NCBI RefSeq assembly: GCF_900103505.1 | Contig: NZ_FNIA01000010.1 | Location: 1-64,000 of the forward strand | DNA length: 64,000 nucleotides | DNA from: Haloarchaeobius iranensis | GTDB lineage: Archaea > Halobacteriota > Halobacteria > Halobacteriales > Natrialbaceae | Direction: 5' to 3' | Shown here: positions 13,602 to 63,079 of the stretch, one piece after another | Numbering within the stretch: the stretch's first letter is position 1 | Layout: each line of letters opens with the position of its first letter | The notes under the pieces: model-generated | Seen by the model: only the letters and a program-made list of their open reading frames with translations | Database searches by the model: none | Told to the model about the DNA's origin: nothing | Program-made: the position numbers and the translations under genes

Positions 13602-13674
13602 GTCCGGGTAGGGTAGTGGACTATCCTCTTGGCTTGCGGAGCCAGGGACCGGAGTTCAAATCTCCGTCCGGACG
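13602..13674 (+). tRNA. tRNA-Arg (GCG)
   Basis: Cloverleaf on the plus strand: acceptor GTCCGGG/TCCGGAC with discriminator G, short D arm, anticodon stem TTGGC/GCCAG with loop TTGCGGA, T arm CGGAG-TTCAAAT-CTCCG. Anticodon GCG reads Arg CGC/CGU codons. A CTTATCC element at 13572-13578 fits the TATA position. Its 3' end is repeated twice downstream (see repeats), marking it as an integration target. Confidence 0.95.
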
Positions 13675-13741
13675 TTTCTCTCGACGCAACGACGACGAGC
13701 GCAGCGAGGAGTCTGCGTCGAGGAAACTCCGCGCGGAGATT
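13662..13741 (+). repeat. 80-bp direct repeat, copy 1, starting inside tRNA-Arg
   Basis: This stretch begins with the last 13 bases of tRNA-Arg and continues into its 3' flank. It matches 13925-14004 with one mismatch over 80 bases. It contains a long hairpin (TCGACGCA at 13681-13688 with TGCGTCGA at 13714-13721) and the 12-base palindrome CTCCGCGCGGAG at 13727-13738. Confidence 0.9.
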
Positions 13742-13772
13742 TGAGCAGGGAGCAAATCTCTGATTTGCGACC

Positions 13773-13797
13773 GAGTTCAAATCTCCGTCCGGACGTT
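13773..13797 (+). repeat. 25-bp copy of the tRNA-Arg 3' end
   Basis: Identical to 13652-13676, that is, the T arm, acceptor strand and two flanking bases of tRNA-Arg, 121 bases downstream. It includes the full T loop, so it is long enough to act as an attachment site. Confidence 0.88.
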
Positions 13798-13924
13798 CCT
13801 TCGTTCCTTCACTTCGTTCAGTCACTACGTCACGTCCGGCCTGCCCCCGCTCGCCCTGCTCGCGGGGACCCCGACCGACCGCGAGCGGTCAGTCGTGCTC
13901 TACGCTCACTGCGTTCGCGTAGAA

Positions 13925-14004
13925 CTCCGTCCGGACGTTTCTCTCGACGCAACGACGACGAGCGCAGCGAGGAGTCTGTGTCGAGGAAACTCCGCGCGGA
14001 GATT
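13925..14004 (+). repeat. 80-bp direct repeat, copy 2
   Basis: Second copy of 13662-13741 with one mismatch (G for A-type change at the hairpin arm, giving TGTGTCGA). It starts with the last 13 bases of the tRNA-Arg sequence and thus is a third, shorter tRNA-end copy. Confidence 0.9.
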
Positions 14005-14094
14005 CGACCAGGGCAGACGGCCGCAGGGAGCGAGTACTGCTGGGTGCGACGACCCGCACGACATTTCACGCCTCGCGCTCGTACATCGACACGA

Positions 14095-61546: not shown

Positions 61547-63079
61547 TCAAGCCGCGACGATGCTCGCGTTCGTCGTGCCCGCACCGCTGCGGACGCCGCT
61601 CAGGTCGTCGACGGTCGGCGCGTTGACGACGACCACCGACGTCCCCTGCTGGACAACGTAGTACGCGTCGCCGTACGCCGCGCTGTCGTCGATGCGATAC
61701 GTGTTCGGTCGGTCGCTCACCGCCTGTGCGTCGTGGTGCTCGAGCAGGTCGCGGTAGGCGTCGGCGAACTCGCTGGCGTCGCTCTCGCTGTCCCACTCGG
61801 TCTGCCAGACGTACCCCGTCTCGTTCGTGCGCATCGAGTCGTCGGTGACGTAGGGGAGGAGCCGGTCACCGGCCCACCCGTCGGTGATGGGGTGGTCGTA
61901 GTTGAACGGGTCCGTCTGGTTGAGCTGCTGGCCGTCGTAGTTCAGGTGGTTCCGGTACGGGATGACGACGTCAGTCAGCTGGCCGGTCGCCTGCGTCGTC
62001 TCGTACGACGGGTACCAGAACATCACGTACAGGCCGGCCTCGCCGAAGGACGCGTGGTCGACGCCGCCCTCGATGTCGAGCACCTGCCAGTCGTCGTTGC
62101 TCCGGTCCTCGATGGTCGGGTAGTCGGGCGCCTCGTCGGGGTAGCGGTCGGGGTGGATGGTCTGCTCGGTGCTCGCCGGCGGGGTCTCGTACACGGCGTT
62201 CACAGCGTCCCAGCCACCCCGGTCGTAGAGCTGCTGGACGAAGAGCACGCCGTCGCTGTAGGGCTGGAACGACACCTGGTACAGTCCAAGATGGATGTCG
62301 CTCGAGCCACCCCCGCCCTGCTGTCCCTGGGGCATCAGGCAGTCCCAGTCGGACTCACAGCGTTCCTGGTACAGCTGGTCGACGAAGTTGCCGTCGCCCT
62401 CGATGATGCCGTCCCGTGCGTTGTGGAGTTCTTGGGTGGACTGGTCGAAGGAGCTGATGTCGAACCGCTGGTCCTGCAGCCCGTGGAACAGCTCCTGCGA
62501 GAGCGTGATCTCGTTCATCTCCGGCGTCTCGGAGTCGGAGATGATGACGATCTGCTCCTCGCTCGGGGAGTAGTAGCCGCCGACGCTGCCCCCGAAGTTC
62601 CGGTTCTGGACGGCGACCGCGTCGGTCGACTCGTCGACCATCAGCATCGCCTCCCACTTGACGTTCTGGTGGAGCCGGCTCGTGGCGGTCGTGTTGCCGG
62701 CCGCGACCTGCTCGCGGTACTCCTCACGCGAGATTATCTCGACCGGGACGCGGGTCTCGAACTCGAGGCCACGGACCCGCTCGACGCGAGCCATCGACCG
62801 GGAGACGACCCTGTCGAGTTCGGTGTCGTTCAGCCCGTCGCTCCGGTCGACGGTGATGCTCTCGTTGTACCAGTAGCCGTCTTCCCAGCCGAGGACGTCC
62901 TCCTCGGGGTCGGACGGGGCGGCGGAGCCGTCGCCGCTTGTCGTCGTCGGTTCTGCCGTCGTCTGCATCGTCTCCGTCGGTGCCGTGGTCTCGGCGTCGG
63001 GCGCACTCGAGCCAGTGAGCGCGCTACAGCCCGCGAGGACCACCAGCAGGGCGACGAGGACACTCGCCGTTGCTCGCAT
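61547..63079 (-). CDS. Hvo_1808-like surface lipoprotein with altered metal site
   Basis: The 510-residue paralogue of the 60071 gene has a lipobox (VLAGC, Cys18), a Thr/Ser/Pro-rich stalk, and the same domain (GWEDGYWYNESI). The metal motif is SQELFHGLQD: the first His has become Gln195 while Glu196 and His199 remain, and the EGDG (IIEGDGNFVD) segment is kept. A loss of zinc binding and catalysis is likely. The C-terminal part is highly similar to its partner (YDRGGWDAVNAVYETPPAST). Confidence 0.85.
   Translation of the reverse strand: MRATASVLVALLVVLAGCSALTGSSAPDAETTAPTETMQTTAEPTTTSGDGSAAPSDPEEDVLGWEDGYWYNESITVDRSDGLNDTELDRVVSRSMARVERVRGLEFETRVPVEIISREEYREQVAAGNTTATSRLHQNVKWEAMLMVDESTDAVAVQNRNFGGSVGGYYSPSEEQIVIISDSETPEMNEITLSQELFHGLQDQRFDISSFDQSTQELHNARDGIIEGDGNFVDQLYQERCESDWDCLMPQGQQGGGGSSDIHLGLYQVSFQPYSDGVLFVQQLYDRGGWDAVNAVYETPPASTEQTIHPDRYPDEAPDYPTIEDRSNDDWQVLDIEGGVDHASFGEAGLYVMFWYPSYETTQATGQLTDVVIPYRNHLNYDGQQLNQTDPFNYDHPITDGWAGDRLLPYVTDDSMRTNETGYVWQTEWDSESDASEFADAYRDLLEHHDAQAVSDRPNTYRIDDSAAYGDAYYVVQQGTSVVVVNAPTVDDLSGVRSGAGTTNASIVAA

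What the first reader, a model, noticed from the sequence alone, without database searches (positions are those of the whole stretch)
13602..14004. Array of tRNA-Arg 3'-end copies with 80-base repeat
Seen: the tRNA-Arg 3' end occurs three times, as 25 bases at 13773-13797 and inside an 80-base repeat (13662-13741 and 13925-14004, one mismatch). The repeat also carries the same hairpin and palindrome. Inference: repeated insertions at one tRNA or a tandem expansion of the attachment site.
Basis: partly seen in the sequence, partly recalled or inferred. Interest (0 to 1): 0.52.

Follow-up and report, generated by a model that had tools for sequence, protein, structure and literature searches.

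The report
Haloarchaeal tRNA-tail palindrome cassettes
Behind a third to a half of the tRNA genes examined in salt-loving archaea sit short non-coding DNA units, each built from copies of that very tRNA's own tail arranged forward, backward and forward around hairpins; I found no description of them, and how they keep matching their tRNA gene is an open, testable puzzle.

Summary
After tRNA-Arg(GCG) come a hairpin (H1), an inverted copy of the tRNA's own T-arm (I), a second hairpin (H2), a direct copy of its 3' end (D2), then a second unit type and a truncated repeat of the first. The same D-H1-I-H2-D plan, with arms specific to each tRNA, follows many other tRNA genes: direct copy 17 of 44, inverted copy 17 of 44, 0 of 44 upstream; 17 of 30 in another family, against 3 of 29 with either and 0 of 29 with both copies in non-haloarchaea. 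A model of H2 hits 56 of 60 haloarchaeal genomes and 0 of 235 others of the phylum. Units are present or absent exactly, tandem or permuted between congeners. Their arms follow their tRNA's sequence (64 against 4) and H1 covaries. Integrases use the same sites: 28 of 30 elements join the tRNA, 2 join a D2 copy. Simple insertion scars do not explain this. I favour a tRNA-templated palindromic repeat spread by template switching and recombination; an RNA-trailer role is the main rival.

The parts
13602..13674 (+). tRNA-Arg(GCG) gene; its 3' end is D1
   Evidence: ARAGORN, Rfam RF00005 47.8 bits
13675..13727 (+). H1 hairpin of cassette C1; stem TTTC.TCTCGACGCA / TGCGTCGAGGAAAC, inner loop CGACGAGCGCAGCGAGGAG (tandem G.A mismatches around a GNA triloop, my reading)
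   Evidence: fold; 9 of 13 pairs with two-sided changes in 17 genomes
13728..13744 (+). I: imperfect inverted copy of the tRNA T-loop, T-stem and part of the acceptor strand
   Evidence: inverted score 12 against 5 upstream
13745..13772 (+). H2 core, GCAGGGAG...CGACC type, which closes a hairpin between I and D2
   Evidence: folds; covariance-model hit at 13733-13789, E 1.4e-7
13773..13795 (+). D2: direct copy of the tRNA 3' end (identity runs on to 13797)
   Evidence: exact 25-base match
13796..13924 (+). cassette C2: palindromes with an inverted acceptor-end copy CGTCCGG (13833-13839); GNA-type hairpins on the minus strand
   Evidence: same plan with CAGG-type ends in other genera
13925..13937 (+). 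D3: 13-nt direct copy of the acceptor end
13938..14013 (+). second, truncated copy of H1 and I, without a closing direct copy
   Evidence: 97% identical over 89 nt

Best explanation
These are haloarchaeal tRNA-tail cassettes: non-coding units of roughly 100-130 bp with the fixed plan D1 (the tRNA 3' end) - hairpin H1 - I (inverted copy of that 3' end) - hairpin H2 - D2 (direct copy). SHOWN: the plan, its dependence on the tRNA it follows, its spread in haloarchaea, exact presence or absence, tandem and permuted arrays, arms that change with the tRNA, and shared H2 core types behind different tRNAs. INFERRED: the cassettes are non-autonomous repeats, shaped like tiny inverted triplications, kept and multiplied by replication template switching at stable hairpins beside highly transcribed tRNA genes. 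Switching inside the palindrome rewrites the I arm (and one side of H1) from the other arm; recombination between direct D copies adds, removes and reorders whole units. tRNA-targeting integrases use the same 3' ends and occasionally a D2 copy, but did not build the units.
For: Plan at other tRNAs. Own-specific arms: the direct copy is 88% identical to the own tRNA beyond the searched T-loop, 41.5% to other tRNAs; the inverted copy 57% against 36% (72 of 77 rows). Arms track the tRNA: acceptor variant 64 concordant against 4; in tRNA-Lys(TTT), where G000 differs from G001 and G003, the tail copies carry the local version. H1 covariation score 0.594 against 0.271 +/- 0.029 shuffled and at most 0.128 slid. 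Exact one-cassette presence/absence at tRNA-Leu(CAA), G001 against G003. Permuted order at Arg(GCG) and Asp. Tandem exact repeats. Core type 1 at 14 tRNA species; 11 of 25 species carry more than one type. Template switching is reported to extend arm identity of quasi-palindromes in highly transcribed DNA (PMC3820800, abstract), and inverted triplications to form at short interrupted inverted repeats (PMC4689423, passages).
Against: No transposition or template-switch event was observed; only one genome per species was available. The H2 sequence motif is conserved across haloarchaea and the Arg(GCG) unit across many genera, which looks like selection. Cores at different tRNAs of one genus are only slightly more alike than background (0.32 against 0.21; 9% against 2% at 0.8 or more). 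I know no reason why template switching alone would keep to tRNA genes or be absent outside haloarchaea. The source of the non-templated hairpin cores is not explained.
Confidence: 0.42

Rival explanations
1. Host-selected RNA trailer: the unit is transcribed behind the tRNA; H1 and H2 end transcription or guide 3' maturation, and D2 pairs with I so that I cannot invade the tRNA's own T-arm. Units vary in number because they are redundant.
For: H1 covariation and a conserved H2 motif with conserved mismatches. GNA-type hairpins lie mostly on the tRNA-sense strand: 17 sense against 4 antisense in G000 tails, 46 against 3 in the wider set. tRNAs without a module have longer T runs in the first 30 nt (mean 2.73 against 2.16, p 0.004). 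RNA folds z -6.6 and -7.65. Hairpins upstream of 503 termination sites and a tested hairpin with 59% termination in Haloferax volcanii (PMC7237163, passages).
Against: Many tRNA genes of the same genomes lack any unit (26 of 44 in G000 by the rule) and whole units come and go between congeners. C2 hairpins face the other strand. Integrated elements often separate tRNA and units (28 of 30 elements join the tRNA directly). A terminator needs no copy of the tRNA's own end. No RNA data were examined.
Confidence: 0.3
2. Integrase-mobilised mini-elements: non-autonomous cassettes with the tRNA 3' end as core site, moved in trans by tyrosine integrases of viruses and plasmids.
For: Direct repeats of the tRNA end flank each unit; exact presence/absence; integrases of this family sit beside tRNAs in 30 of 30 loci read; elements can join a D2 copy (G000 Glu(CTC) L368, G038 L385; G036).
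Against: The strict H2 pattern has 0 matches in viral contigs; 33 relaxed matches showed no T-loop arms. The HF2 and HSTV-2 attP regions read have the tRNA end but no cassette. 16 of 18 model hits in G000 stand directly beside tRNAs and the other 2 behind tRNA 3'-end copies, none at an unrelated site. The inverted copy and H1 covariation are not needed for this.
Confidence: 0.15
3. Attachment-site scars: each unit is the residue of an integrated virus or plasmid that decayed.
For: The tRNA is an active integration site (G033, G036) and tRNA 3'-end copies mark element ends.
Against: Uniform plan, own inverted copies and conserved cores behind many tRNAs and genera; units lie outside element ends.
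Confidence: 0.06
4. Decoy landing sites: extra copies of the tRNA end kept to draw integrases away from the tRNA gene.
For: Three loci where an element or its remnant joins D2.
Against: 28 of 30 integrase loci join the tRNA itself; integration restores the tRNA anyway (PMC8371274, passages). A cassette gained after the element is not excluded in the three cases.
Confidence: 0.05

Closest known systems
tRNA attachment sites of archaeal tyrosine integrases (SNJ2, HF2/HSTV-2 type)
   Same: tRNA 3' end duplicated as direct copies; the same tRNA genes are targets; elements join D1 or, in 3 loci seen, D2
   Different: no integrase in the unit; own inverted copy and two hairpins; resident on the chromosomal side; not in the two viral attP regions read
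Inverted triplications (ODIRA, tandem inversion duplications)
   Same: direct-inverted-direct order with palindromic junctions (PMC4689423, passages)
   Different: about 20-nt arms instead of kilobases, conserved junction families, tied to tRNA 3' ends across haloarchaea
REP/MITE/PATE palindromic repeats
   Same: short, non-coding, palindromic, many copies per genome
   Different: arms are not a family sequence but a copy of the adjacent tRNA; no known transposase ends; place restricted to tRNA tails (REP and MITE properties recalled)
Structure-assisted transcription terminators of Haloferax volcanii
   Same: hairpins downstream of genes (PMC7237163, passages)
   Different: in the passages read those are not described as carrying tRNA 3'-end copies; these units do
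Entamoeba tRNA gene arrays with spacer repeats
   Same: tandem repeats beside tRNA genes (PMC2652664, search listing only)
   Different: those arrays repeat whole tRNA genes; no own-arm direct-inverted-direct plan seen in the listing

Membership tests
tRNA-targeting integrative element or its remnant | tyrosine integrase gene in or next to the unit | tested here: not met
   no integrase hit in the window, best E 0.065 and far from the array
tRNA-targeting integrative element or its remnant | bounded by direct copies of the tRNA 3' end | tested here: met
tRNA-targeting integrative element or its remnant | same sequence found as attP in viruses or plasmids | tested here: not met
   0 strict matches, 33 relaxed matches without arms, HF2 and HSTV-2 attP without the unit; plasmids not scanned for the unit
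REP/MITE palindromic repeat | one conserved terminal inverted repeat shared by all copies | tested here: not met
   arms follow the local tRNA
REP/MITE palindromic repeat | scattered over intergenic sites | tested here: not met
   77 of 83 pattern matches behind a tRNA; 16 of 18 model hits in G000
Inverted triplication from snap-back replication | direct-inverted-direct order with palindromic junctions | tested here: met
Inverted triplication from snap-back replication | arises de novo by template switching | not testable with these tools
   no mutation-accumulation or strain data
Structured RNA (trailer/terminator) | covarying helix | tested here: met
   arm-to-arm template switching could give the same pattern
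Structured RNA (trailer/terminator) | unit is transcribed and processed | not tested
Known Rfam family | match to a curated covariance model | tested here: not met
   only tRNA over its cut-off, plus one hit far below cut-off

The most novel reading that the evidence does not exclude
A new kind of mobile palindromic DNA whose recognition arms are not fixed but are rewritten from the host gene beside it: one set of hairpin cores spreads among different tRNA genes of a genome, and each copy acquires the direct and inverted 3' end of its new tRNA, so the element targets by copying its target.
Probability: 0.28. Interest if true: 0.88.

Novelty: categorically new. Interest (0 to 1): 0.73.

Why it matters
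tRNA genes are the classic landing sites of viruses and plasmids, yet here a haloarchaea-wide layer of non-coding palindromes sits on exactly that spot and stays matched to each tRNA. It gives a natural record of arm-to-arm template switching (or of RNA selection) replicated over many tRNA genes and dozens of genomes, and it will confuse attachment-site and tRNA annotation. Haloferax species carry such units (four named species), so the question can be tested genetically.

Tried and rejected
Rejected: (1) chance repeat: no own copies upstream of tRNAs (0 of 44) and fold z-scores. (2) A known RNA: Rfam gave only tRNA over its cut-off. (3) Insertion scars: see rivals. (4) Viral origin: strict pattern 0 hits; relaxed pattern 33 hits, none with hairpin arms. 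A search of viral contigs with the G033 integrase found no relative, so that collection may hold few such haloarchaeal elements and its silence is weak evidence; the phage collection does hold relatives (49 records), of which two attP regions were read. (5) A kink-turn or splicing motif in H2: looked at by eye, not convincing, not claimed. (6) Spread of cores between tRNAs judged by core similarity: only a weak signal, so I rely on discrete types, whose classes I defined by hand after seeing sequences; 12 of 58 units stayed unclassified.

Literature: ten answered searches, nine on haloarchaea with tRNA genes, repeats, trailers or integration and one on inversion duplications. No title or abstract shown described the units. 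The library is open-access only, so an earlier description elsewhere is possible.

Limits: one genome per species, so no strain-level copy number; no RNA data; Haloferax volcanii itself was not examined. Module counts differ with the rule used: G000 direct 17 of 44 and inverted 17 of 44 by local alignment; either copy 18 of 44 by mismatch counting, which misses tRNA-Thr(TGT), whose H2 is visible. In one search, 5 of 77 rows were dropped (T-loop not TTCAAATC, or the unit too far out). In one search only items with a genus that I assigned from record titles were used (96 items). One search used the 30 loci returned per search, not all tRNAs of those genomes. The G001 region L289, a tRNA cluster that also holds two ordinary tRNA loci, is included in the G001 total and left out.

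Full report
WHAT WAS CHECKED. The window is haloarchaeal DNA (own genome G000, contig C50). The reported repeats exist as stated: exact 25 bases at 13773-13797 and an 80-mer at 13662-13741 and 13925-14004 with one mismatch. The array sits between a 214-aa ORF without a Pfam match and a DUF309 gene.

ANATOMY. Read from the tRNA: D1 (tRNA 3' end) - H1 hairpin - I, an inverted copy of T-loop, T-stem and part of the acceptor - H2 core - D2, a direct copy. This is cassette C1. Then comes C2, built the same way around the acceptor end only (inverted CGTCCGG at 13833-13839, direct 13-mer at 13925-13937), then a truncated C1. As RNA, C1 folds with z -6.6. Folded together with the tRNA (z -7.65), the predicted minimum pairs the tRNA's 5' acceptor strand with the distal D2 copy, so D1 and D2 compete. 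The H1 inner loop reads as tandem G.A mismatches around a GNA triloop; that such loops are very stable is recalled, not from a call.

THE SAME PLAN BEHIND OTHER tRNA GENES. Printing the tails of the 44 tRNAs of G000 shows it by eye. Scored by local alignment of each tRNA's last 25 nt, 17 of 44 have a direct copy and 17 of 44 an inverted copy within 300 nt downstream, against 0 of 44 and 0 of 44 upstream. In G111, of another family, 16 of 30 have the direct, 16 of 30 the inverted and 15 of 30 both, upstream 0; among 29 tRNAs from three non-haloarchaeal genomes of the phylum, 2 have a direct copy, 1 an inverted, 0 both. One of the two direct cases is a neighbouring tandem tRNA gene; the other is a longer duplication.

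TAXONOMIC RANGE. Of 83 matches in them, 77 lie less than 600 nt behind a tRNA on the same strand, at 24 tRNA species; the other 6 lie at contig ends, beside Ns, behind a tRNA-like 3' end without a detected gene, or on the strand opposite a tRNA. A covariance model of H2 (34 sequences) hits 56 of 60 genomes of the order and 0 of 235 other genomes of the phylum. In G000 it gives 18 hits: 16 beside tRNAs (positions compared), 1 behind an element 14.4 kb from tRNA-Val(CAC), and 1 behind a partial tRNA-Arg(CCG) end.

ARMS FOLLOW THE tRNA. Beyond the T-loop letters fixed by the pattern, the direct copy is 88% identical to the own tRNA and 41.5% to others; the inverted copy 57% against 36% over six positions, falling from 94% at the first to 25% at the sixth (72 of 77 rows). 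At tRNA-Arg(GCG) two acceptor variants exist; tail copies, direct and inverted, agree with their own tRNA in 64 of 68 cases. At tRNA-Lys(TTT), where G000 differs from G001 and G003, the tails carry the local form. The H1 stem keeps pairing in 92.3% of cells, with 47 two-sided changes against 17.9 +/- 3.8 shuffled, and no slid version comes near. Relatedness inflates such counts, and arm-to-arm copying could produce them without selection; the number of pairs with two-sided changes (9) is itself not beyond the shuffles (7.1 +/- 1.3).

TURNOVER. Order and number differ in the genus. At tRNA-Leu(CAA) one whole cassette is present in G001 and exactly absent in G003, with matching flank beyond. Tandem identical copies occur, for example two in L092 and three in L152, and four model hits at 111-bp spacing in G264. 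H2 cores fall into discrete types: type 1 behind 14 tRNA species and type 2 behind 7; 11 of 25 species carry more than one type; 12 of 58 units unclassified.

RELATION TO INTEGRASES. The tyrosine integrase of the G033 insert at tRNA-Arg(GCG) (PF00589) has relatives in 88 of 195 genomes of the order and in haloviruses. In all 30 loci read, the integrase lies beside a tRNA; in 28 the element joins the tRNA directly, in 2 it joins the D2 of an intervening cassette. A third D2 junction, with an integrase remnant, is in G036. For G000 Glu(CTC), G001 and G003 carry an H2-bearing cassette without the element, which suits later integration at D2, although H1 differs and a later cassette gain is not excluded. 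The HF2 and HSTV-2 attP regions have the tRNA end without a cassette.

INTERPRETATION. Two models remain strong. In the first, the units are small direct-inverted-direct palindromes kept by template switching and recombination; such switching is known to extend arm identity of quasi-palindromes in highly transcribed yeast DNA (PMC3820800, abstract), and inverted triplications form at short inverted repeats (PMC4689423, passages). In the second, they are RNA trailers under selection; sense-strand bias of the hairpins, the shorter T runs where a module is present, the conserved H2 motif and known hairpin termination in H. volcanii (PMC7237163, passages) speak for it. I hold the first at 0.42 and the second at 0.30; they can both be partly true. 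Not explained by either: where the non-tRNA hairpin cores come from, and why only haloarchaea have them.

NOVELTY. No paper seen in the searches describes these units. The Haloquadratum genome paper, in the passages read, reports partial tRNA copies only as element ends (PMC3119063), and the review of archaeal tyrosine recombinases treats tRNA 3' ends as attachment sites (PMC8371274, passages). I rate the unit as a new kind because it fails a defining feature of the integrative-element and REP/MITE families it resembles, while saying plainly that its function is not established and that subscription literature was not searched.

Noticed in passing
L289 (G001:C2, about 921-926 kb): A dense minus-strand cluster of about a dozen tRNA-like genes in G001, none with a direct tail copy by the rule; it looks like a mobile tRNA array.
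   Followed up: no
L230 (G000:C62:31381-45950): A 14.4-kb island between tRNA-Val(CAC) and a displaced cassette; the sequence after the cassette's D2 resembles the island's own start, suggesting a repeated or tandem insertion.
   Followed up: partly
L040, L052, L230, L232 (G000): A small reading frame starting GTGAGTGCCGAGAGCCAGTTCGG lies just behind tRNA-Ala(CGC) and tRNA-Val(CAC); similar starts are visible behind Met, Arg(TCG) and Tyr tRNAs without cassettes.
   Followed up: no
L365-L394, between tRNA and integrase: Repeated short motifs such as CGCCGTCTTGCGATT between tRNA and integrase in many elements and in haloviruses HF2 and HSTV-2; possibly integrase arm sites.
   Followed up: no
window 62091-62522: Weak similarity (21% over 149 aa, E 0.065) to the HF2 integrase on the minus strand; probably chance.
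   Followed up: no
L297 (G001 tRNA-Thr(TGT) tail): A repeat of about 78 bp spanning H2 and unique flank, different from the whole-cassette repeats and perhaps a recent slip event.
   Followed up: no
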